DNA of 64,000 bases, taken from NCBI GenBank assembly GCA_030147525.1, contig JASBVF010000055.1, positions 124,001-188,000 on the forward strand, in the 5' to 3' direction. Source of the stretch: Bacteroidota bacterium (GTDB lineage Bacteria; Bacteroidota; Bacteroidia; Chitinophagales; Saprospiraceae). Below are positions 32,800 through 43,482 of the stretch, one piece after another. A program made the translations under genes and the position numbers. Positions within the stretch are counted from its first letter, which is position 1. Every line of letters starts with the position of its first letter. A model generated the notes under the pieces. The model made no database searches. It was not told the origin of the DNA and saw only the letters and a program-made list of their open reading frames with translations.

Positions 32800-33504
32800 T
32801 TATTCGAATGCTGACATTTTTTTCAGCGCCTCCAAATCCCGTACTATCAGGTAATTGCGATTGAAATGAACGATTCCTGCCCGGCGCAGTTTGTTTAGCA
32901 CAGTGGTGACAGTCTGGCGCCCAGTGCCGGCTATCAGACCCATTTTCTGATGGGTCAGGGCTGGTTTTACCACCCATTCAAGCCCCACCCGTTTGCCCGA
33001 TCTCTGCACATGACTGATTAAGAAATTTACGACTCGCTCCGTTGAACTCAGCAGAGCGAAACGCCGCAGACGTTCCTGGGTACGTGAAAGCGAGCAAGAG
33101 AGATTGGACATCACTTCCTCCAGCAGGCCCGGGTTGGTTTTTATGGCCCACCGGAAATTACTCAATGGGATTTTTTTAATAGCAGACAGCTGCGTCATTG
33201 CCTCGGCGGTCAATTCTCTCCGGTTCTGTCCAAAGAGTATCTCAATGTTGAACAATTCTCCCTCCTGGTAGTAATCCTCCAGCACCTCCTTGCCGTCGTG
33301 GAAAGAACTGATCATAACTAATCCCCTGGTAACCAGGTAGATATATTGCGAACTGCTGCTACCCTCCCTGAAAATAACTTGTCCTTTTTTGAGCGTTATT
33401 TCGGGTAAAGCCTCGAAAGGAGAAGCCCCGCCCGAGGGGCCCGGGGCCTTGGGGAAATGTGCCGGGAATCCTTCCCGCTGTAAATTCATGGCTATCATAC
33501 GCAA
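32800..33504 (-). CDS. Crp/Fnr-family regulator with CooA-like recognition helix (RQT)
   Basis: 234 residues. The cyclic-nucleotide-like effector domain spans about 30-140 (KKGQVIFREGSSSSQYIYLVTRGLV, EGELFNIE), then the long dimerisation helix (about 130-160) and a winged helix (about 180-234). The recognition helix reads GTGRQTVTTVLNKLRRAG, with Arg196-Gln197 where CRP and FNR have Arg-Glu. CooA, as I recall it, also has Arg-Gln there and binds TGTC-type half-sites. No cysteine cluster for an FNR iron-sulphur centre is present; heme binding cannot be read from sequence. Candidate operators are listed at 34636, 34920 and 45774. Confidence 0.88.
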   Translation of the reverse strand: MRMIAMNLQREGFPAHFPKAPGPSGGASPFEALPEITLKKGQVIFREGSSSSQYIYLVTRGLVMISSFHDGKEVLEDYYQEGELFNIEILFGQNRRELTAEAMTQLSAIKKIPLSNFRWAIKTNPGLLEEVMSNLSCSLSRTQERLRRFALLSSTERVVNFLISHVQRSGKRVGLEWVVKPALTHQKMGLIAGTGRQTVTTVLNKLRRAGIVHFNRNYLIVRDLEALKKMSAFE

Positions 33505-33636
33505 GTTTTATTTGTTTGCCTGATTGGTAGCCGGTATCGTGAAATCCTGACAGTTGAAGTAAATTATTTTTTTAAAAAATTTTAAAAACACTTGCGTGTA
33601 GGGAAAGGGAAATCACCAAGGTAACGAAGAAATGCA

Positions 33637-33915
33637 TCAGTGCTGCGTATCTAAACGCTGGAGGATTCTTTCCTCCAATTCTTCGGATGGCTGTTCGAGT
33701 TCAGGCGAAACAGGTGCTTTTTCCCTCGACTTGAACCAGCGCTCGATAAGCTTACTCTGCTCCTCGTAGCGGCGGCAGGCTTCACACATTTTCGTGTGGA
33801 AGTGCAACTGTATTTTTTCCAAAAGGGAAAGCTCGCCGGAGTGTTTCTTTTCCATCAGCCCGGTGGCAGCCTTGCACGGCAACATCAATTTTTGCATCAT
33901 TTTCATACCCTTCAT
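33637..33915 (-). CDS. Anti-sigma factor, zinc-finger (ZAS) type
   Basis: 92 residues. LLEKIQLHFHTKMCEACRRY contains the HxxxCxxC zinc motif of zf-HC2 anti-sigma factors, with LPCKAATGLM upstream, and an acidic C-terminal tail with no membrane helix, so it is soluble. It lies 36 bases after the ECF sigma gene on the same strand and presumably holds that sigma inactive until a redox or zinc signal releases it. Confidence 0.82.
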   Translation of the reverse strand: MKGMKMMQKLMLPCKAATGLMEKKHSGELSLLEKIQLHFHTKMCEACRRYEEQSKLIERWFKSREKAPVSPELEQPSEELEERILQRLDTQH

Positions 33916-33951
33916 TATTTACCCGTTACCGGGATTATAGGCTTGCAGGCT

Positions 33952-34524
33952 TCACTGCCGGGGAACAAACCAATATTTTTCGAGGCAATCCCTCAATTGC
34001 AGCTTTGCCCTGTGAATAATTTGCCAGTAATTGGTGGTAGTAATGCCCAGTTCCTGACAAATCTTTTTGCCTTTTTTTTCATCGAGAAATTTGAGTCTGA
34101 TGCAGGCATTCATCATGGCAGGAAGGTGTTCAATGCAGTCGTCGAAGATTTTGTTGAAGGCAGGCAGGTCGGTGAGGTTCCCGGTCTCGCTTTGCCAGGC
34201 ATGGGGCATGGCGCTTTTTCCCCATCGGCCATCTGATGAAAAGAAGGAGGCGATTTCATCGGAGGGCAGAGTGGTGGTGATGTTTTGGCGGATGGATTTG
34301 CGGTAGTGCTCTGCGATTTTATTTTTCAGAATACCGGTGAGCCAGGTTTTGGGCTGGCTGTCTCTTTTAAATCCGGACATGCTTTCGGCAGCTGCGAGGA
34401 AAGTCTCCTGTACGAGATCTTCCGATAGCTCCTTGTCAGAGGTATTGCGATATGCCCAGGCATACAGGTCTTTGGTGTAAAGCCTTACCCACTCGGTCAG
34501 TTCTGTCTTGTTGTTGTTTTCCAT
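33952..34524 (-). CDS. ECF sigma factor (TIGR02943-like)
   Basis: 190 residues. Region 2 has DLYAWAYRNTSDKELSEDLVQETFLAA and WLTGILKNKIAEHYRK; region 4 has LPAMMNACIRLKFLDEKKGKKICQELGITTTNYWQIIHRAKLQL. The unusually long linker (FFSSDGRWGKSAMPHAWQSE...) matches the Bacteroidota TIGR02943 group. It is the first gene of a sigma/anti-sigma pair; its targets may be nearby redox genes. Confidence 0.9.
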   Translation of the reverse strand: MENNNKTELTEWVRLYTKDLYAWAYRNTSDKELSEDLVQETFLAAAESMSGFKRDSQPKTWLTGILKNKIAEHYRKSIRQNITTTLPSDEIASFFSSDGRWGKSAMPHAWQSETGNLTDLPAFNKIFDDCIEHLPAMMNACIRLKFLDEKKGKKICQELGITTTNYWQIIHRAKLQLRDCLEKYWFVPRQ

Positions 34525-35019: not shown

Positions 35020-35622
35020 ATGAAATTACCATTTTTGACAACCCTGCCACTGTTACTGGCTGCCACGACCTCCATCGCACAACTTCCCGAAAAAGCAGAG
35101 GACATTTCCCCACTGCTCACCGGCGAAGTATTTCCCGACACGCAGCTGAAAGACGCAGATGGCAGTTCGGTTTCTTTGCACGATATATTGAAAGAAAAGC
35201 CCACTGTGCTGGTTTTCTACCGGGGTGGTTGGTGCCCTTATTGCAATACCCACCTCTCCGCACTGGGAAAAAATGAAGCGGAAATCCTTGCACTGGGCTA
35301 TCAGGTCGTCGCCATTAGCCCGGATGCAGCGAAGGGCTTGCAGGAAACCGTTGCAAAGGACGAAATCAACTACCGCCTGCTTTCCGATGCATCAGGCGAC
35401 CTCGCACGGGCAGTGGGTATAGCCTTTCAAGCCCCCGAAAAGTACGGACAACACCTGCTCGAAAGCTCGGATGGAAAAAATACCGGATTCCTGCCCGTTC
35501 CTTCTGTTTTTGTGCTGGGCACGGACGGCAGCATTTTGTTTGAATACATCAACCCGGATTACAAAAAGCGGCTGGACGGTGATTTGTTGCTGGCGGCTTT
35601 GAAGGTGTTGAAAGCTGGCTGA
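35020..35622 (+). CDS. Exported peroxiredoxin-like (AhpC/TSA) protein
   Basis: 200 residues. Signal peptide (ends TTSIAQ), then a thioredoxin-fold core: LKEKPTVLVFYRGGWCPYCNTHL, with WCPYC instead of the PxxxTxxC peroxidase motif, and VPSVFVLGTDGSI. The RGGWCPYC form marks the peroxiredoxin-like group, often periplasmic, with likely thiol-based peroxide or disulphide reduction. A strong terminator follows at 35630. Confidence 0.87.
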   Translation: MKLPFLTTLPLLLAATTSIAQLPEKAEDISPLLTGEVFPDTQLKDADGSSVSLHDILKEKPTVLVFYRGGWCPYCNTHLSALGKNEAEILALGYQVVAISPDAAKGLQETVAKDEINYRLLSDASGDLARAVGIAFQAPEKYGQHLLESSDGKNTGFLPVPSVFVLGTDGSILFEYINPDYKKRLDGDLLLAALKVLKAG

Positions 35623-36396: not shown

Positions 36397-38328
36397 ATGT
36401 CAGAATTTACAAAAAAGCAATGGAATGCCGGGTGGTCTGAGATGGCCTTAAATCAATCAGTTTATCCGGTAATTTGGGTCAAGGAGGACGGGCGCATCGT
36501 AAAATTTAACCAGTCTCTGATTGAAAAAACAGGCTACACTTCGGACGAACTGGAAACGCTGGTACTTTTCGACCTCGATGAGTCATTGACCAAAAAAAGC
36601 TGGAAAAACATCTGGGAAAAAACAAGGGAGGAACACGCCGGTTTTGCCGATTCGCAACTGACCACAAAAGCTGGTAAAATACTGCCGGTGGAGATGAATT
36701 TTACCCTTGTAAAATCAACCCAGCCTCCGTTGTGTTGCATTTTCATTAATGACATTTCCCAAAGGAAAGAACTGGCCCTGAAGCTAAAAGAAGCCAACTT
36801 TCTTCTTGAGAGGATCGTGGACGAACGGGCGGAAGGCTCAAAAATGACTTATAATGCCCTGAAAGCCCACGAGGAAGCCATTGAGCAATTGAGCAAACTC
36901 CAGCGCAGTACGAGGCTGATCCTGGATTCTGTTGGCGAAGGAATTTATGGGCTTGATATCAATGGCCACACCACTTTTGTCAACCCGGCTGCCCGCCGCA
37001 TGGTAGGCTACGAACTGGAAGAACTCGTCGGGAAACTAAACCACGACATCATTCATCATACCCATCCTGACGGCAGCCATTACGAAGGAAAAGATTGCCC
37101 GATATATGCCGCTTTTAAAGATGGCGAAATCCATGAGGTGTGCGATGAGGTGTTTTGGAGAAAAGACGGAACAAGTTTTCCGGTGGAGTATGTCAGTACA
37201 CCCATCAAAGACAGCGAAGGCAACCTGGCCGGGGCAGTCGTGGTATTCAAAGATATTACCCGGCGGAAAGAAGATGAAAAGGCCCTGCTGAAAGCTAACG
37301 AAGATTTGGCAAAAGCACTGGAAGAAGTCAGTATTTTGAAAAACCAGTTGGAACAGGAAAATCAGTACCTGCAACAGGAAATCAAGGTGACACACAATTT
37401 TACTGAAATCATCAGCGAAAGCAAAAAGTTCAAGACTGTTTTGAGGCAAATAGAACAAGTCGCTCCGACGGATGCCTCTGTGTTGATCCTCGGAGAATCG
37501 GGTACCGGCAAGGAATTGATTGCCCGGGCCGTCCATAATCTGAGCAACCGGCAGAACAGACCCCTGGTGAAAGTAAACTGTGCAGCACTGCCGGCCAACC
37601 TGATCGAGAGTGAGCTCTTCGGACACGAACGGGGAGCATTCACAGGAGCCTTGACTAAAAAAACCGGCCGCTTCGAACTGGCTGACGGAGGTACGATCTT
37701 TCTGGATGAAGTGGGTGAAATGCCTCTCGAACTACAACCGAAGCTGCTGCGGGTATTGCAGGAAGGCGAATTTGAAAGACTCGGAAATGCCAGAACCACA
37801 AAGGTCAATGTCAGGGTAATAGCAGCTACCAACAGAGACCTTCAAAAAGAAGTGGACAATGGCAATTTCAGAGAAGACCTTTTCTACCGGCTGAATGTAT
37901 TTCCATTGCATGTGCCGCCATTGCGGGATCGAGCGGAAGATATTCCACTGCTTGTCAGGCATTTTCTAATGAAATACGGTAAAAAATTCGGTAAAACGGT
38001 GGATACCGTGTCCCAAAAAGTAATGTATGATTTGATTAAATACCCATGGCCCGGCAATGTCAGGGAGCTCGAAAATGTAATTGAAAGGGCTCTGATTATC
38101 AGTCCGGGCAAGCAGCTGAACATCGGCAACTCTCTGCCCAGATTGTCAGGGCCTGCCGGCAAGAAAAGAATTGAAACACTGGAAGAAAACGAAAGAAACC
38201 ACATCCTCAAAGCGCTTGAATTTACTAATTGGAGAATCAGCGGGGACAAAGGCGCCGCCAGGCTGCTCGACATAAAAAGAACTACCCTGGAGGCAAGAAT
38301 GAAAAAGCTGGGAATCGAGCGCCCCTGA
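36397..38328 (+). CDS. Sigma-54-dependent activator, PAS-PAS-AAA-HTH
   Basis: 643 residues. Two PAS-type sensors (about 16-130, with a cysteine pair at CCIF; and about 168-290, containing [18 protein letters not shown]) are followed by a coiled coil (about 295-335), the AAA+ domain (about 340-575; Walker A GESGTGKE at 366, GAFTGA loop at 413, Walker B GTIFLDE at 432, [10 protein letters not shown] at 551) and a Fis-type helix-turn-helix (about 596-640). It opens sigma-54 promoters by ATP hydrolysis. The PAS cysteines and histidines suggest redox or electrophile sensing. Its binding sites and target promoter appear to lie immediately downstream (38333-38459). Confidence 0.93.
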
Positions 38329-38332
38329 GCAT

Positions 38333-38367
38333 TGCCAATATATTGGCATTTCGCCAAAATGTTGGCA
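38333..38367. promoter_or_regulatory. Paired palindromic enhancer (UAS) for the sigma-54 activator
   Basis: TGCCAATATATTGGCA (38333-38348) is a perfect 16-base palindrome. CGCCAAAATGTTGGCA (38352-38367) is a second copy with shared core GCCAA-N4-TTGGC. Centres are 19 bases apart, about two helical turns, and about 100-120 bases upstream of the -12 element at 38458. This is the standard distance for enhancers of such activators; the first site begins five bases after the activator stop. Confidence 0.7.
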
Positions 38368-38444
38368 AAAACAATTTCCGTTTAATAAAAGTGGTCTATT
38401 TGTAAGTAAGTGATATGCAGCGAGTTATGTGCTAAAAATGCGAT

Positions 38445-38459
38445 TGGCACGCCGCTTGC
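38445..38459 (+). promoter_or_regulatory. Sigma-54 promoter (-24/-12)
   Basis: TGGCACGCCGCTTGC has the full TGGCACG (-24) and TTGC (-12) blocks, with GG and GC exactly ten bases apart. Transcription should start near 38471, about 37 bases before the ATG at 38508. One of the clearest regulatory sites in the window. Confidence 0.85.
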
Positions 38460-38507
38460 CTAACCTGGTAGTAACAAAATCATTTTTTACACTAATTTTT
38501 TACTGCC

Positions 38508-39047
38508 ATGAAAACTTTAAGAGCCCTTTCAAAAGGGCAGACCAGCGAAAAAACGAAATACATTTTCGGAGCTATTCGCCGAAAAATCGGATGGGTTCCC
38601 AACATTTATGCAGCCATGGGAAATTCCTCCCAGCTACTCAGCGGCTTTCTTTCGCTGAACGAAACACTCAACAAAGGCATCTTTTGGGCAAAAGAGCGTG
38701 AGGCTATTGCTTTGGCAGTATCCCAGGTAAATGGCTGTCAGTACTGTCTTTCGGCCCATACCGAACAGGCAATACTGGCCGGCTTTACTGAAGCGGAAAC
38801 AATCGAACTGAGAAAAGGCGCCATCAACGATAAAAAGTTGAGGCCTCTGACCAGACTCGCTATGGAACTGACTGAAAAACAGGGAATAGCTTCTCCTGAA
38901 ACGATCAAACGGTTTTATGCCGCCGGTTACGACGAGACGGCCCTGGCCGAACTGATTGGCCTGATTGGGTTGCGCACGATTTCCAACTACATTTTCAACC
39001 ACGGCGATTTCGATATTGACTTTCCAAAAGCACCATCTATCGAGTGA
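38508..39047 (+). CDS. Carboxymuconolactone decarboxylase / AhpD-type peroxidase-related protein
   Basis: 179 residues. The CQYCLSAH motif gives CxxC plus His, the AhpD proton-relay site, preceded by REAIALAVSQVNG. The N-terminus (RKIGWVPNIYAAMG) matches the uncharacterised-peroxidase-related group. It reduces hydroperoxides or recycles oxidised thiol carriers. It is the predicted direct target of the sigma-54 promoter at 38445, placing it under the PAS activator upstream. A hairpin at 39151 follows. Confidence 0.92.
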   Translation: MKTLRALSKGQTSEKTKYIFGAIRRKIGWVPNIYAAMGNSSQLLSGFLSLNETLNKGIFWAKEREAIALAVSQVNGCQYCLSAHTEQAILAGFTEAETIELRKGAINDKKLRPLTRLAMELTEKQGIASPETIKRFYAAGYDETALAELIGLIGLRTISNYIFNHGDFDIDFPKAPSIE

Positions 39048-39150
39048 TTAGTGGTGGCTGCCCGAAAACAGCCCTCGCTTCCTTTCACCTGAATTCAACT
39101 TAAATACTTAACAGGGTACAACCCGGCGTAATGGCTTCAGTGACCAACTG

Positions 39151-39180
39151 TTGTCTTGGCAGCGCTTTGCCCGAAGACAA
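39151..39180. other. Hairpin between AhpD-like and isochorismatase genes
   Basis: TTGTCTT (39151-39157) pairs with AAGACAA (39174-39180), and inside it GGCA pairs with TGCC. No strong T-run follows, so it may be an attenuator or stability element. TTGGCAGCGCTTTGC (39156-39170) is also near-sigma-54 but its spacing is one base short. Confidence 0.5.
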
Positions 39181-39226
39181 TTACACCGGGGGGACTCTCA
39201 TTTTTTTATCCATTAAATATTTGATC

Positions 39227-39970
39227 ATGAAATTCTTTAAAATTTTCATCCTCCTGCTTCTCAACAACTTTTTTGTGCAAAATATACTCGCACAATTGCC
39301 CGACCCTGGCTTCAAGATTGACAACCGTACAGCCATCGTCATTACCGACCCTCAAAACGATTTTCTCAGTTCATCCGGCGTGGCATGGGGAGCCGTCGGT
39401 CAGAGCGTGGAATCCAACAACACCATTGCCAACCTGGAAACTTTGTTCAAACTGGCTGAGGAAGTTGGAATACCTGTTTTCGTATCGCCTCACTATTACT
39501 ACGAACACGACCACCGTTGGCAGTTTGAGGGCACACTCGAAGTTTTGATGCACAACATCAAAATGTTTGACCGTGGCGACCAGCTTTCCCTGGATGGCTT
39601 CAAAGGATCGGGCGCAGATTTTCTGGAGCCCTACAAAAAGTACATCGAAAAGAAAAACGTGACCGTAGTAGGCCCTCACAAGGTCTTTGGTCCGGAGCAG
39701 AACGACCTCAGCCTGCAATTGCGCAAGCAAAAGGTGGATAAAGTGATTCTGGCAGGCATGTCCGGAAACCTCTGTGTGGAGGCACACATGCGGGAACTGA
39801 TTGAAGATGGTTTTGAAGTGGCAGTGGTTGGCGATGCTACTGCATCTGCCATCCTTCCCGGCCTCGATGGAAACCAGGCGGCGCAAACCAATTTCAGGAT
39901 GATTGCGAGCCATGTTTTCACGACCCGTGAGGTGGCCGGAGAAATGAAAGCCTATAAGGCAAAAAAATAA
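39227..39970 (+). CDS. Exported isochorismatase-family cysteine hydrolase
   Basis: 247 residues from ATG 39227, where a signal peptide starts (MKFFKIFILLLLNNFF...LAQ). The fold motifs are RTAIVITDPQNDF (catalytic Asp), a Lys in the GPHKVFGP region, and LAGMSGNLCVEAH with the nucleophile Cys. Family members hydrolyse amides or vinyl ethers. A signal peptide is uncommon in this family, and the substrate may be an extracytoplasmic amide. Confidence 0.88.
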   Translation: MKFFKIFILLLLNNFFVQNILAQLPDPGFKIDNRTAIVITDPQNDFLSSSGVAWGAVGQSVESNNTIANLETLFKLAEEVGIPVFVSPHYYYEHDHRWQFEGTLEVLMHNIKMFDRGDQLSLDGFKGSGADFLEPYKKYIEKKNVTVVGPHKVFGPEQNDLSLQLRKQKVDKVILAGMSGNLCVEAHMRELIEDGFEVAVVGDATASAILPGLDGNQAAQTNFRMIASHVFTTREVAGEMKAYKAKK

Positions 39971-40012
39971 GGACGCTCGTGTAAGTATATCACCCGAAAT
40001 GAGCCCCCGGGA

Positions 40013-40053
40013 GTTGGTGGGGTTGATGAAAAACATCATCAACCCTCGCCAAC
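40013..40053. repeat. Inverted GTTGGTGGGGTTGATG / CATCAACCCTCGCCAAC
   Basis: Arms at 40013-40028 and 40037-40053 pair almost fully around AAAAACAT. It is followed by more CAACCCTCATC-type octads. It lies between the isochorismatase and NTF2-like genes. Confidence 0.75.
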
Positions 40054-40100
40054 CCTCATCAGACGCTATTTACCCTAGTCAACTTTTATAAAATAACATC

Positions 40101-40511
40101 ATGGAAAAAAAATTCCCGCTTCCGCCTTTCACGGAAGCAACAGCAAAGCAGAAAATACAGGCCGCCGAAGATGCCTGGAATACCAAAAATCCTGTGAAGG
40201 TCGCCCAGGCCTATACCGAAGATTCCGAATGGCGCAACCGGACCAGGTTCCTCAAGGGAAGGGCAGAAATCATTGCTTTTCTGACTGAAAAATGGAGCAA
40301 AGAACTCGATTATAAATTGAGAAAATGCTACTGGGCACATACAGACAACAGGATTGCCGTAAGGTTCGAATATGAATGGCGTGACAAAACGGGCCAATGG
40401 TTCCGGGCATATGGAAACGAGAATTGGGAATTTGACGAAAACGGCTTGATGAAAAGAAGGTTTGCCAGCATCAACGACCTCCCGATTGAAGCAGTGGAAA
40501 GAAGGCTGTGA
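40101..40511 (+). CDS. NTF2-like protein (DUF1348 type)
   Basis: 136 residues. [43 protein letters not shown] and [26 protein letters not shown] match the SnoaL/NTF2-like DUF1348 family, complete in length. The cone-shaped pocket may bind a small hydrophobic molecule; no catalytic pair is certain. It starts the likely operon 40101-43482. Confidence 0.88.
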
Positions 40512-40593
40512 CCACTTCAAACATATACTTAATCAATATTTTCTAACTAAATCACATACCGGAAACCCGGTGTGTAATTCTAAATCATTTAAA

Positions 40594-40959
40594 ATGAGCA
40601 AGACAGCAATTGTAGTTTTATCAGAGCCCAACGCAGGTTCGGAAGAAGCACTCGGAAGAGTATTCAATGCTTTGGCAGCAGCGTACGATTTCAAATCGGC
40701 GGGAGAGGAAACAAAAATCCTCTTTCAGGGGGCAGGCACCCGCTGGCCCGAACAACTGCAAAAGGAAGACCACCCTGCCAACAAATTGTACAAAGCGGTT
40801 GAGGATGCCATCGAAGGTATCTCTTGCGGATGTGCGGATGTATTCGGTGCTGACCAGTCGGGGCTTGATTTGATTACGGATAATCCTGTTCCGGGCACGA
40901 CGGGTCTTCCCAGCTTTGTACGCCTGCAAAGGGACGGATATTCCATCATCACTTTTTAA
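40594..40959 (+). CDS. DsrE-like protein
   Basis: 121 residues from ATG 40594. AIVVLSEPNAGSEEALGRVFNAL and ILFQGAGTRWPEQL look like a DsrE/YchN fold; the pair CGC at about residue 80 (ISCGCADVFGA) is at the position of the family's reactive cysteine. These proteins often trap sulphur or act beside thiol redox enzymes. It sits 82 bases after the NTF2-like gene, with a hairpin in the spacer (40556-40575). Confidence 0.75.
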   Translation: MSKTAIVVLSEPNAGSEEALGRVFNALAAAYDFKSAGEETKILFQGAGTRWPEQLQKEDHPANKLYKAVEDAIEGISCGCADVFGADQSGLDLITDNPVPGTTGLPSFVRLQRDGYSIITF

Positions 40960-40979
40960 AGCGTTTTAAAAAAAAAAAC

Positions 40980-41021
40980 GGTGGCTGTGCTAAAGTGAAT
41001 AATTTCATTGGTACAGCTACC
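40980..41021. other. Inverted repeat before the FMN split-barrel gene
   Basis: GGTGGCTGT (40980-40988) pairs with ACAGCTACC (41013-41021) with one mismatch, across a 24-base loop. An A11 tract (40968-40978) is directly upstream. It could be an operator or leader hairpin; its right end is 22 bases before the ATG. Confidence 0.45.
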
Positions 41022-41042
41022 AATTTTAGAAATCGGAAAATT

Positions 41043-41960
41043 ATGGATTCCATTTATCACGAAGGCGAGCAAAAAGTCCAGGAAATCATTGGTGAGATAA
41101 ACGTTGCGAATGCCAATGGCCGGGTTATAGCCGGTAAAATCATTAAAGGCGCATTCAATTTTATCAATGCACAACAGATGGTGATCGTTAGCTCTACCGG
41201 CGAAAACGACAGGGTTTGGGCTTCTCTCTTAATGGGGAAAAGCGGATTCATGACCGTGGTGGACGAAAAAAATGTATTGCTGGACTACTCTCTTTTGCAG
41301 AGTACCAAACGGGATATTTTTTTTCGAAACATAAACACACATCATAAAATCGGGATGCTTTTTATTGAGCTTTTGACCCGCAGGCGCTATCGTTTGAACG
41401 GTAAAGTTACTGTCACCGGTGCAGGTTTGAATATCGAAGTCATAGAAGCCTATCCGAATTGTCCGAAATACATCCAGCGAAGGAAAATCTCATTTTCAAA
41501 AACAGATGGTATGAATGAAGCTCAGCAGCACGAGGGAACAATCCTTGGCCACCGTGAAAAAGAATTTATCAAAAATGCCGACACGCTTTTTGTCGGTAGT
41601 TCGGGAATCAGCAAAAACATGGATGCCTCGCATCGCGGAGGAGCAAAAGGCTTTGTGGAAATACTGGAAAACGGGGTGCTGAAGATTCCTGATTATCAGG
41701 GCAACAGCATGTATAATACGTTGGGCAATTTCGTGCTGAACCCCCATGCAGGCGTCCTGTTTATTGATTTTCAACAAGGCACAAGCTTGCAGTTGAGCGG
41801 TACAGCGAGTTTACTTTTTGACCAGTCCTCGGAAGAGGATTTGCAAAAAACTACTGGCACAGGAAGGTATTGGTTGTTTGAAACCGAAAAATGGATATTG
41901 ACGGAACAACATCACCGGGCTGATTGGGAATTTATCGATTTTTCACCTTTTAATCCTTAG
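41043..41960 (+). CDS. Pyridoxamine 5'-phosphate oxidase-like FMN split-barrel protein
   Basis: 305 residues from ATG 41043. GEQKVQEIIGE, MVIVSSTGENDRVWASLLMGKSGFM and HHKIGMLFIELLTRRRYRLNGKV are split-barrel flavin-binding segments, and a second similar half follows (FIKNADTLFVGSSG, MYNTLGNFVLNPHAGVLFIDF), so it has two half-barrels. It lies three bases before the ferredoxin reductase. Homologues exist where the two are fused into one protein, so it probably receives or passes electrons in that pair. Confidence 0.85.
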   Translation: MDSIYHEGEQKVQEIIGEINVANANGRVIAGKIIKGAFNFINAQQMVIVSSTGENDRVWASLLMGKSGFMTVVDEKNVLLDYSLLQSTKRDIFFRNINTHHKIGMLFIELLTRRRYRLNGKVTVTGAGLNIEVIEAYPNCPKYIQRRKISFSKTDGMNEAQQHEGTILGHREKEFIKNADTLFVGSSGISKNMDASHRGGAKGFVEILENGVLKIPDYQGNSMYNTLGNFVLNPHAGVLFIDFQQGTSLQLSGTASLLFDQSSEEDLQKTTGTGRYWLFETEKWILTEQHHRADWEFIDFSPFNP

Positions 41961-41963
41961 ACC

Positions 41964-42986
41964 ATGTTCAGGCATTTCACCGTTCAAAAAATCGTTCAAG
42001 AAAGCGATACTATCCGTTCATTTTACTTGGCAAAAACCAACCGGGAAGAAGTCGAAGACTACCTGCCGGGTCAGTTTATTACAGTCGGCATTTTAATCAA
42101 TGGAGAACAGTTCACTAGAAATTATACGCTTTCGGACGCTCCGGGGAAGGGATATTTCCGGTTGACTGTCAAGCGGGAAGAAAAAGGAAAAGTCTCAAAA
42201 TATCTCCACGATGTGTTGAAAGAGGGCGGCCTGTTAAACATTAGTAAACCCACCGGGAAATTTCACATCAACATTGCTGCTGATAATCCAATTGTACTGA
42301 TTTCGGGTGGAGTAGGCATCACGCCCATGTTGAGCATGGCAGAGTATGCAGCGGCTCACCAACCCAACCGAAAAGTCTATTTCCTGCATTCGAGCATTGA
42401 CAAACAGGTGCAACCGATGTCGAAGAGATTAAGGGAAATTCAGGCAAAACATCCTGGGTTTGAATTGACCATTTTCCATACGACTCCGCAGGAAGATGAA
42501 TTGAAAGGAGTTGACTTTGATGAAAAAGGATTCATCACCCGGCAGTATTTGGAAGCCATGAATATCGAAAAAGGCGCCGATTATTATCTATGTGGCCCCG
42601 TTGGTTTTATGGAAGCGATGTACAATGCGCTGATCGAAATGAAAATACCGGAAACGAACATAGCTTATGAGTTTTTTGGGGACGGAAAATTATCCGGGGC
42701 CGCTCCAAAATTTACGGATTCCAAAAGTGCCGGGCTAAGCGTTACTTTTTCAAAGTCAGGTGTATCTGCCAATTGGCCGGAAGGCATATCAAGTCTGTTG
42801 GAATTGGCAGAGGTAAACGGTTTGTCGCCGGCTTTTAGTTGCAGAATGGGAACCTGCTCTACCTGCGAAACGAGAATGATTAGCGGTGAAATCACCTACG
42901 ACCCCGAACCATTCATGGAGCCGCAGACAGAGAATATTTTTATTTGCTGCGCAAAACCTGTTTCGGACGTAATTATTGATTTGTAA
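41964..42986 (+). CDS. Ferredoxin-type reductase with C-terminal 2Fe-2S domain
   Basis: 340 residues. FAD-binding barrel (about 1-100: RNYTLSDAPG flavin motif), NAD(P) domain (about 105-235: ISGGVGITPMLSM, YYLCGPVGFMEAM) and a plant-type 2Fe-2S domain (about 258-340: CRMGTCSTCETRM and a final CCAKP). This is the Hcr/Hmp-like electron-transfer layout, from NAD(P)H through FAD to the cluster. Its partner is probably the FMN protein three bases upstream. Confidence 0.92.
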   Translation: MFRHFTVQKIVQESDTIRSFYLAKTNREEVEDYLPGQFITVGILINGEQFTRNYTLSDAPGKGYFRLTVKREEKGKVSKYLHDVLKEGGLLNISKPTGKFHINIAADNPIVLISGGVGITPMLSMAEYAAAHQPNRKVYFLHSSIDKQVQPMSKRLREIQAKHPGFELTIFHTTPQEDELKGVDFDEKGFITRQYLEAMNIEKGADYYLCGPVGFMEAMYNALIEMKIPETNIAYEFFGDGKLSGAAPKFTDSKSAGLSVTFSKSGVSANWPEGISSLLELAEVNGLSPAFSCRMGTCSTCETRMISGEITYDPEPFMEPQTENIFICCAKPVSDVIIDL

Positions 42987-42999
42987 AAATAATTGACAA

Positions 43000-43482
43000 G
43001 TGAAGCCTGAACATTCTATTCAAAAGGAACAGGAAAAATTCATGCGCCACTGTTTGACCTTGGCGGAAAAAGCTTTGGAGGCCGGAAACCCACCTGTCGG
43101 TTCTATTATCGTTTATCAAAACACAATTATTGGCGAAGGCATAGAATCGGGAAAAACAACAAACGACATAACGAACCACGCTGAGATATTGGCAGTCAGA
43201 GATGCCATCAAAAGAGGATACAAAGATTTACTGAAAGAAAGCACCCTGTACTCCACTCACGAGCCCTGTATCATGTGTTCGTATGTCCTCCGGCACCATA
43301 CAATTCCCGAAGTCATTTTGGGAGTTCCGGTCGCAAATATTGGCGGATACACTTCAAGCTTTCCGATACTAAAAACCGGGCATGTACCCAATTGGGAAAT
43401 GGCTCCGAAAGTTTCATTTGGGGTTTGCGGAGCAGACTGCGAAGGTTTGGACCGCCGGTTTCAAAAGAAAAACAAAGAGTGA
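43000..43482 (+). CDS. Zinc-dependent nucleoside/cytidine-type deaminase
   Basis: 160 residues from GTG 43000; ATG at 43042 is possible. Zinc motifs HAEILAVRDA and EPCIMCSYVL (PCxxC) identify the CMP/dCMP deaminase fold; the tail (FGVCGADCEGL) has more cysteines. Substrate could be guanine, cytosine or a tRNA base. It overlaps the operon end 13 bases after the reductase. Confidence 0.88.
   Translation: MKPEHSIQKEQEKFMRHCLTLAEKALEAGNPPVGSIIVYQNTIIGEGIESGKTTNDITNHAEILAVRDAIKRGYKDLLKESTLYSTHEPCIMCSYVLRHHTIPEVILGVPVANIGGYTSSFPILKTGHVPNWEMAPKVSFGVCGADCEGLDRRFQKKNKE

What the first reader, a model, noticed from the sequence alone, without database searches (positions are those of the whole stretch)
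36397..39047. Self-contained sigma-54 redox circuit: PAS activator, palindromic enhancers, sigma-54 promoter, AhpD-like target
The activator gene ends at 38328. Five bases later two GCCAA-N4-TTGGC palindromes begin (38333-38367, centres 19 bases apart), about 100 bases ahead of TGGCACGCCGCTTGC (38445-38459), which has the exact GG-N10-GC spacing of a sigma-54 promoter. The target encodes a CxxC AhpD-type protein. The activator's PAS domains contain Cys and His clusters, and a 1-Cys peroxiredoxin is divergent from it. Sigma-54 control of peroxide or electrophile defence through such a unit is, to my knowledge, not a well-described Bacteroidota system.
Basis: partly seen in the sequence, partly recalled or inferred. 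Interest (0 to 1): 0.75.

Follow-up and report, generated by a model that had tools for sequence, protein, structure and literature searches.

The report
Conserved sigma-54 switch for detoxification genes
A bacterial gene switch with a fixed, conserved DNA layout (paired regulator-binding sites, a DNA-bending site and a special promoter) appears to turn on a set of probable detoxification enzymes; the layout looks real, but what triggers it is not known.

Summary
All 12 genomes in which an activator ortholog was found (9 of 398 family genomes, 3 of 80 of a distant family) carry the operator pair, sometimes imperfect, 75-77 bp ahead of a -24/-12 element (G091: AG for GG), although spacers are dissimilar and first target genes differ. 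Ten spacers were tested for an IHF-type site: exact in 6, within one mismatch in 9 (shuffle means 0.2, 2.9). The target is an operon, not one AhpD-like gene: CMD/AhpD-like, isochorismatase, DUF1348, DsrE, PPOX, 2Fe-2S reductase, deaminase (38508-43482). Best reading: a one-component sigma-54 activator senses a toxic small molecule through PAS and induces detoxification. A peroxide or electrophile signal is plausible (1-Cys peroxiredoxin divergent in 5 of 6 long-form activators) but unproven; the PAS type is shared with regulators beside cyanate/cyanide genes and with a histidine kinase. Not a NitA/CynF, NorR or FhlA member. New variant of a known kind.

The parts
36397..38328 (+). One-component sigma-54 activator, 643 aa: PAS1, PAS2 (HH-x3-DG...CPI motif), AAA+ sigma-54 interaction domain with GAFTGA, Fis-type HTH
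   Evidence: Pfam PF00158 8.7e-76, PAS_9, PF02954; GAFTGA conserved in 7 of 7 aligned orthologs
38333..38348 (.). Operator site 1, TGCCAATATATTGGCA
   Evidence: Exact palindrome; a pair with the same 19-bp step is in 12 of 12 ortholog genomes, partly degenerate in some
38352..38367 (.). Operator site 2, CGCCAAAATGTTGGCA, centre 19 bp from site 1
38403..38415 (-). IHF-type bending site, one mismatch to WATCAA-N4-TTR (consensus recalled)
   Evidence: exact in 6 of 10 spacers, within 1 mismatch in 9 of 10
38445..38459 (+). -24/-12 sigma-54 promoter TGGCACGCCGCTTGC; start site near 38471 is inferred
   Evidence: such an element 75-77 bp after the operator in 12 of 12 loci, in G091 with AG for GG
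38508..39047 (+). CMD/AhpD-core protein with CxxC and His
   Evidence: PF02627 3.3e-12; TIGR00778 51 bits over cut-off 27.8
39227..39970 (+). Isochorismatase-like cysteine hydrolase, hydrophobic N-terminus (secretion inferred); start chosen at the internal ATG
   Evidence: PF00857
40101..40511 (+). DUF1348 (NTF2-like)
   Evidence: PF07080 1.4e-62
40594..40959 (+). DsrE-like protein (start inferred; the listed ORF begins at 40462)
   Evidence: PF02635
40995..41960 (+). PPOX-type flavoprotein (PNPOx_N)
   Evidence: PF01243; TIGR04025, two stretches, below cut-off
41964..42986 (+). FAD/NAD(P)/2Fe-2S reductase like the flavohemoprotein reductase part
   Evidence: PF00970, PF00175, PF00111
43000..43482 (+). 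Cytidine-deaminase-fold deaminase; last collinear gene
   Evidence: PF00383
35680..36315 (-). 1-Cys peroxiredoxin (single Cys at 45), divergent from the activator; probably functionally linked, no operator of its own seen
   Evidence: PF10417; single Cys; divergent in 5 of 12 ortholog loci

Best explanation
This is a dedicated sigma-54 induction circuit for a detoxification operon. The activator oligomerises on two adjacent 16-bp palindromes (consensus TGCCAA-N4-TTGGCA, 19 bp apart) whose centres lie about 130 and 111 bp upstream of the inferred start site. An HU/IHF-type protein bends the roughly 76-bp spacer so that the AAA ring can touch the sigma-54 polymerase parked at TTGGCAC-N5-TTG and open it. 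A small molecule or redox signal perceived by the PAS part (mainly PAS2, present in all orthologs) sets the switch. The operon (AhpD-like CMD, isochorismatase-like hydrolase, DUF1348, DsrE, PPOX flavoprotein, 2Fe-2S reductase and deaminase here; alpha/beta hydrolase and OsmC in relatives) removes a reactive compound, most likely an organic peroxide, quinone-like electrophile or reactive chlorine species. Shown by sequence: the parts, their order, spacing and conservation. Inferred: binding by this activator, bending, sigma-54 use, operon transcription and the nature of the signal.
For: Operator and -24/-12 at 75-77 bp in 12 of 12 ortholog genomes; G318, G791 and G535 were read only after the ortholog was found. 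TGGYAY-N5-TTG is expected by chance about 0.0001 times in a given 3-position slot, and 11 of 12 loci have it (density; G091 has TAG). Pair scores are 19-23 of 24 in the 12 loci against at most 17 in 16 loci with paralogous activators and at most 18 in 42 other CMD loci. Co-occurrence 7/9 vs 10/389. Spacers are dissimilar (mean ungapped identity 0.40, range 0.20-0.59, nine promoters) and the first gene differs (CMD, DUF1348, thiolase, alpha/beta hydrolase, isochorismatase), which argues against mere shared ancestry of one promoter. IHF-type site: exact in 6 of 10 (shuffle mean 0.21, maximum 2), within one mismatch in 9 of 10 (mean 2.9, maximum 8), 1000 shuffles. Ten orthologs form one clade, 100/98. 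GAFTGA in 7 of 7. Redox theme: divergent 1-Cys peroxiredoxin, AhpD-core CMD, OsmC; a DUF1348 protein gave cercosporin resistance in Neurospora (PMC4608573, abstract and passages); CMD and OsmC genes are among those raised 37- to 75-fold in HOCl-treated biofilms (PMC7464077, passage).
Against: No expression or binding data. The signal is not determined: PAS2 is of a type shared with regulators beside cyanate/cyanide genes and a histidine kinase. Disruption of the fungal DUF1348 gene had no phenotype. Seven of 12 orthologs lack an adjacent peroxiredoxin in the stretches fetched. G091 has AG instead of GG at -24, a degenerate first palindrome, an in-frame stop in the activator, no first Cys in CMD and no isochorismatase at E<=1e-40. 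G547 has no IHF-type site within one mismatch, the window's own site has one mismatch, and further one-mismatch matches occur at other offsets in 5 of the 10 spacers. The own genome has no IHF equivalog above cut-off among the two HU/IHF proteins scanned. CMD relatives are common (132 of 199 genomes), and 42 of the 44 CMD loci scanned lack the operator. The full-length structure model was poor.
Confidence: 0.66

Rival explanations
1. The same circuit answers a cyano-type toxin (cyanide, cyanate, nitrile or a derivative), as CynF and NitA are thought to; the hydrolases, deaminase and DUF1348 process such compounds rather than peroxides.
For: PAS2 is 50-59% identical to PAS of plasmid-borne sigma-54 regulators; the neighbourhoods of 7 of these were read and all 7 hold cyanase/transporter or nit1C genes. 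Bosea, Methylobacterium and Acinetobacter regulators lead the full-length plasmid hits, 28 records at E<=1e-100. DUF1348 lies in 2 of the 4 cyn loci read, Bosea and Loktanella. CynF is essential for cyanate-induced cyn expression (PMC6627978, passages).
Against: No cyanase or nitrilase was seen among the cluster genes of the orthologs. PAS identity to a Pseudanabaena histidine kinase is as high. DUF1348 is common (280 plasmid records) and sits with GST and PPOX genes elsewhere. The AAA+HTH tree puts the seven nit1C/cyn rows in a clade of their own. No such operator in four of these loci.
Confidence: 0.17
2. The palindromes bind another regulator, or act as RNA hairpins at the 3' end of the activator mRNA, and the activator works elsewhere.
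For: They begin 5 bases after the stop codon and could each form a 6-bp stem; no protein-DNA data exist.
Against: In the 6 of 12 loci where the activator is 3-12 kb away the pair sits upstream of the target genes with the same spacing; no terminator is called there; presence tracks the activator ortholog.
Confidence: 0.07
3. The TGGCAC-N5-TTGC match is chance and the operon is read from a promoter of the main sigma factor.
For: Short motif; -24 damaged in G091; a weak sigma-70-like match overlaps the palindromes (38332-38360), though such matches are at shuffle level (9 found, 9.5 expected).
Against: Such an element at 75-77 bp in 12 of 12 loci (chance density); GAFTGA kept; rpoN present.
Confidence: 0.05

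Closest known systems
CynF (cyn operon) and NitA (nit1C) sigma-54 regulators of Pseudomonas pseudoalcaligenes and relatives
   Same: One-component layout PAS-AAA of about 640 aa, the same PAS2 type, DUF1348 in some cyn clusters; CynF has a putative -24/-12 target promoter (PMC6627978, passages). The plasmid genes compared here were given these names by neighbourhood, not by comparison with the Pseudomonas proteins
   Different: Different target genes, no such operator in the four loci scanned, separate clade in the AAA+HTH tree
NifA/NorR/FhlA-type sigma-54 activators
   Same: GAFTGA AAA domain; paired upstream sites and an IHF-type bend are recalled as typical of this class
   Different: Below the curated cut-offs of the NifA, NorR and FhlA models; different sensor
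Sigma-54 regulon of Flavobacterium psychrophilum
   Same: Same phylum; -24/-12 promoters
   Different: The passages seen name chaperones, envelope stress and gliding genes (PMC9723704)
Oxidant-response genes and HOCl regulators such as RclR
   Same: CMD and OsmC among HOCl-raised genes; RclR raises a putative peroxiredoxin in P. aeruginosa (PMC7464077, passages)
   Different: RclR is an AraC-type regulator; here sigma-54

Membership tests
Sigma-54 enhancer-binding activators | AAA sigma-54 interaction domain with Walker A and GAFTGA | tested here: met
Sigma-54 enhancer-binding activators | C-terminal Fis-type HTH | tested here: met
   PF02954 30.9 bits over 22
Sigma-54 enhancer-binding activators | rpoN in the genome and -24/-12 target promoter | tested here: met
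Sigma-54 enhancer-binding activators | ATP-dependent activation of sigma-54 polymerase | not testable with these tools
   needs biochemistry
CynF/NitA | PAS2 type and overall layout | tested here: met
   50-59% identity to the plasmid relatives; layout
CynF/NitA | Linked cyn or nit1C genes | tested here: not met
   None seen among the cluster genes scanned or listed; distant loci of these genomes were not searched
CynF/NitA | Same clade by AAA+HTH | tested here: not met
   40 rows, midpoint root
NorR | Score over the curated NorR cut-off | tested here: not met
   370 against 476 bits
FhlA | Score over the curated cut-off | tested here: not met
   425 against 830 bits
AhpD (38508) | AhpD core domain with CxxC and His | tested here: met
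   TIGR00778 51 over 27.8 bits; CxxC in 4 of 5 aligned proteins, window included
AhpD (38508) | Full-length AhpD or peroxidase-related models over cut-off | tested here: not met
   TIGR00777 21 of 192, TIGR01926 59 of 82 bits
IHF-dependent promoter | IHF consensus in the spacer | tested here: inconclusive
   6 of 10 exact, 9 of 10 within 1 mismatch, but the window site itself has 1 mismatch
IHF-dependent promoter | IHF subunits in the genome | tested here: inconclusive
   Three PF00216 hits, two scanned; best models HU-beta and IHF-beta, both below cut-off

The most novel reading that the evidence does not exclude
A sporadically distributed, probably horizontally moved Bacteroidota sigma-54 module in which a PAS shared with cyanide/cyanate regulators has been joined to a Bacteroidota activator with its own operator, giving a third branch of that sensor family that controls a DUF1348/isochorismatase/AhpD-like detoxification pathway against a reactive small molecule with no known bacterial sensor.
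Probability: 0.2. Interest if true: 0.72.

Novelty: new variant of a known kind. Interest (0 to 1): 0.52.

Why it matters
In my searches the only sigma-54 promoters of Bacteroidota that I saw described were the mapped regulon of Flavobacterium psychrophilum and genome-wide predictions. This unit gives a predicted operator, a bend site, a promoter placed within 1-2 bp and a target list, so sensor, signal and enzymes (several of unknown function, DUF1348 among them) become testable with one reporter strain. It also separates operator specificity from sensor type within related activators.

Tried and rejected
Peroxiredoxin as an operator-controlled target: no palindrome or -24/-12 match, even with 2 mismatches, between 35680 and 36397. 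Single palindromes elsewhere in the genome as further regulon members: at the control level, none with a -24/-12 match near it among the 13 read. Tandem hits in G066, G219 and G626 lie inside ORFs; G180 was judged coding by eye; no cluster genes there. Hits in G430, G749, G240, G274, G155, G394, G304, G277 and G352 were not inspected. The own CMD paralog on C38 has no palindrome within 1 mismatch in 15 kb. Paralogous activators L118-L133: best pair score 17 of 24. Same operator in nit1C/cyn loci L181-L184: best pair score 16 or less on the one strand scanned, which suffices as the template is its own reverse complement. Isochorismatase of G045 on another contig: best pair score 16 around it; that of G220 sits at the end of a short contig, its upstream unknown. 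Solved-structure search with PAS2: only generic PAS relatives. PAS2 alone folded well (pLDDT 89), but its structural neighbours are flavin, heme and other PAS folds, so no ligand follows. The full-length model was poor and not used. Ortholog searches scored only the best 4-20 candidates per genome, so some orthologs may be missed. No shuffle control was run for the spacing itself; only the motif density. Literature: eight searches that ran of an open-access library showed no description of this circuit; that is not proof that none exists. Papers were seen as listings, abstracts or passages, none in full. Names NitA, CynF, the IHF consensus, the AhpD motif and the -24/-12 consensus were first recalled; NitA and CynF were then found in print.

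Full report
Observation. The activator ORF 36397-38328, the palindromes TGCCAATATATTGGCA (38333-38348) and CGCCAAAATGTTGGCA (38352-38367) and the element TGGCACGCCGCTTGC (38445-38459) are as stated. In the window neither motif has another exact match; with 2 mismatches neither is enriched over shuffles. Over the genome single palindromes are at background (17 against 15 for the reversed pattern), so the evidence lies in the pair, its place and its conservation.

Conservation. An activator ortholog (E <= 1e-160 to PAS2-AAA-HTH) was found in 9 of 398 family genomes, 3 of 80 genomes of another family of the phylum and 1 of 277 of a class sample, the own genome. The tandem operator with up to 2 mismatches is in 17 of 398 genomes against 3 for the control pattern and in 5 of 395 phylum genomes against 4, which is no excess. 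Within the 398 it is in 7 of 9 with the ortholog and 10 of 389 without (p = 2e-9); the two misses, G091 and G318, have a degenerate first site that was found by reading the loci. The three orthologs of the second family have the pair too (G547, G791, G535). So 12 of 12 have it. Scores over the 24 consensus positions run from 19 (G318) to 23. As background the best score in 16 loci with paralogous activators is 17, and in 42 CMD loci other than the window's and G091's it is 18. Many of these CMD loci are short (flanks of about 1.5 kb).

Geometry. In all 12 loci an element T(G/A)GYAY-N5-TTG follows the 35-bp operator after 75-77 bp; 11 have TGG, G091 has TAG. The density of TGGYAY-N5-TTG in the fetched loci gives a chance of about 0.0001 for one 3-position slot. 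Spacers are dissimilar (mean ungapped identity 0.40, range 0.20-0.59 over nine). Ten spacers were tested for WATCAA-N4-TTR: exact in 6, within one mismatch in 9; in each of the nine a best-scoring match is at offset 33-35 on the minus or 46-47 on the plus strand. Further one-mismatch matches occur at other offsets in 5 of them, and G547 has none. 1000 shuffles gave means of 0.21 (maximum 2) and 2.9 (maximum 8); none reached either count. The two spacers found later have a one-mismatch site at offset 35, minus strand (G791, G535). The window's own site (38403-38415) has one mismatch.

Regulon. Genes behind the promoter, by Pfam scan or tblastn with the window's proteins: window CMD, isochorismatase, DUF1348, DsrE, PPOX, 2Fe-2S reductase, deaminase; G316 CMD, alpha/beta hydrolase, isochorismatase, OsmC, DUF1348, PPOX; G322 CMD, alpha/beta hydrolase, isochorismatase, DUF1348; G220 and G091 CMD, alpha/beta hydrolase; G104 alpha/beta hydrolase, isochorismatase, OsmC, DUF1348, deaminase, PPOX; G318 a CMD remnant (read by eye), alpha/beta hydrolase, isochorismatase, a second alpha/beta hydrolase, OsmC, DUF1348; G058 DUF1348, YHS, isochorismatase; G045 thiolase, PPOX; G547 isochorismatase, DUF1348, SDR; G791 and G535 isochorismatase, DUF1348. 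Operon transcription is inferred from collinearity.

Two forms of activator. Six orthologs have the N-terminal PAS (window, G058, G091, G220, G316, G318), six lack it or were matched only from about residue 158 on. The 1-Cys peroxiredoxin is divergent in five of the six long forms and was not seen near G220 or the short ones within the stretches fetched. In six loci the operator lies just behind the activator (window, G058, G045, G322, G318, G791); in the other six it is 3-12 kb away.

Sensor. PAS2 carries invariant H216, H220, H221, D225, G226, C234, P235 in the 10 orthologs aligned. Its best plasmid relatives (469 records, 25 listed) include sigma-54 regulators at 50-59% identity, Deinococcus proteins at 48-55% and a Pseudanabaena histidine kinase at 57%. 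The neighbourhoods of seven of the regulators were read: cyn genes in Methylobacterium, Bosea and strain SC52, nit1C genes in three Acinetobacter, both in Loktanella. In P. pseudoalcaligenes CynF is required for cyanate-induced cyn expression (PMC6627978, passages) and NitA is the regulator gene beside nit1C (PMC11049912, passages); I give the plasmid genes these names by neighbourhood. Their divergent regions seem to hold other palindromes (by eye). By AAA+HTH the window clade (10 orthologs, 100/98) lies among Bacteroidota activators and apart from those rows (40 rows). Hence sensor type and operator or target are not tied together, and the ligand cannot be read off.

Function. AhpD-core CMD, OsmC, PPOX, 2Fe-2S reductase and the peroxiredoxin neighbour point to oxidants or electrophiles. 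A fungal DUF1348 protein gave resistance to the photosensitiser cercosporin when expressed in Neurospora, although its disruption had no phenotype (PMC4608573, abstract and passages). CMD and OsmC genes are among those reported as raised 37- to 75-fold in HOCl-treated biofilms (PMC7464077, passage). DUF1348 also lies in 2 of the 4 cyn loci read, which keeps a cyano-type signal open; but it is common and also found beside GST and PPOX genes.

Verdict. The architecture is confirmed and clearly more than chance; the redox reading is the likelier of two, not proven. New variant of a known kind, interest 0.52.

Noticed in passing
L184 (Loktanella salsilacus plasmid plas2): One PAS sigma-54 regulator lies between a cyanate (cyn) cluster with DUF1348 and a nit1C cluster, which suggests one regulator for both.
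   Followed up: partly
L181, L185, L188 (Acinetobacter plasmids): nit1C clusters with their sigma-54 regulator sit on plasmids typed as mobilizable.
   Followed up: no
L176:7486-8292 (G318), L200:2943-3994 (G535), L177:3605-4012 (G316): Remnants: a CMD fragment without CxxC in G318, and extra fragments of the activator 3' end in G535 and G316, which suggest rearrangement around the operator.
   Followed up: partly
L114, L079 (G091): Activator with an in-frame stop, peroxiredoxin split between frames, -24 GG changed to AG, CMD without its first Cys: a decaying copy or assembly errors.
   Followed up: no
window 35020-35622 and 32800-34524: Next to the circuit: another AhpC/TSA-type protein, a Crp/Fnr-type regulator and a sigma-70-family (ECF-like) factor with a small partner whose zinc-finger match is below cut-off.
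   Followed up: partly
L187 (Methylomagnum plasmid): A PAS sigma-54 regulator next to LysR and a CMD-PPOX-GST-DUF1348 gene set: similar enzyme content beside another regulator.
   Followed up: partly
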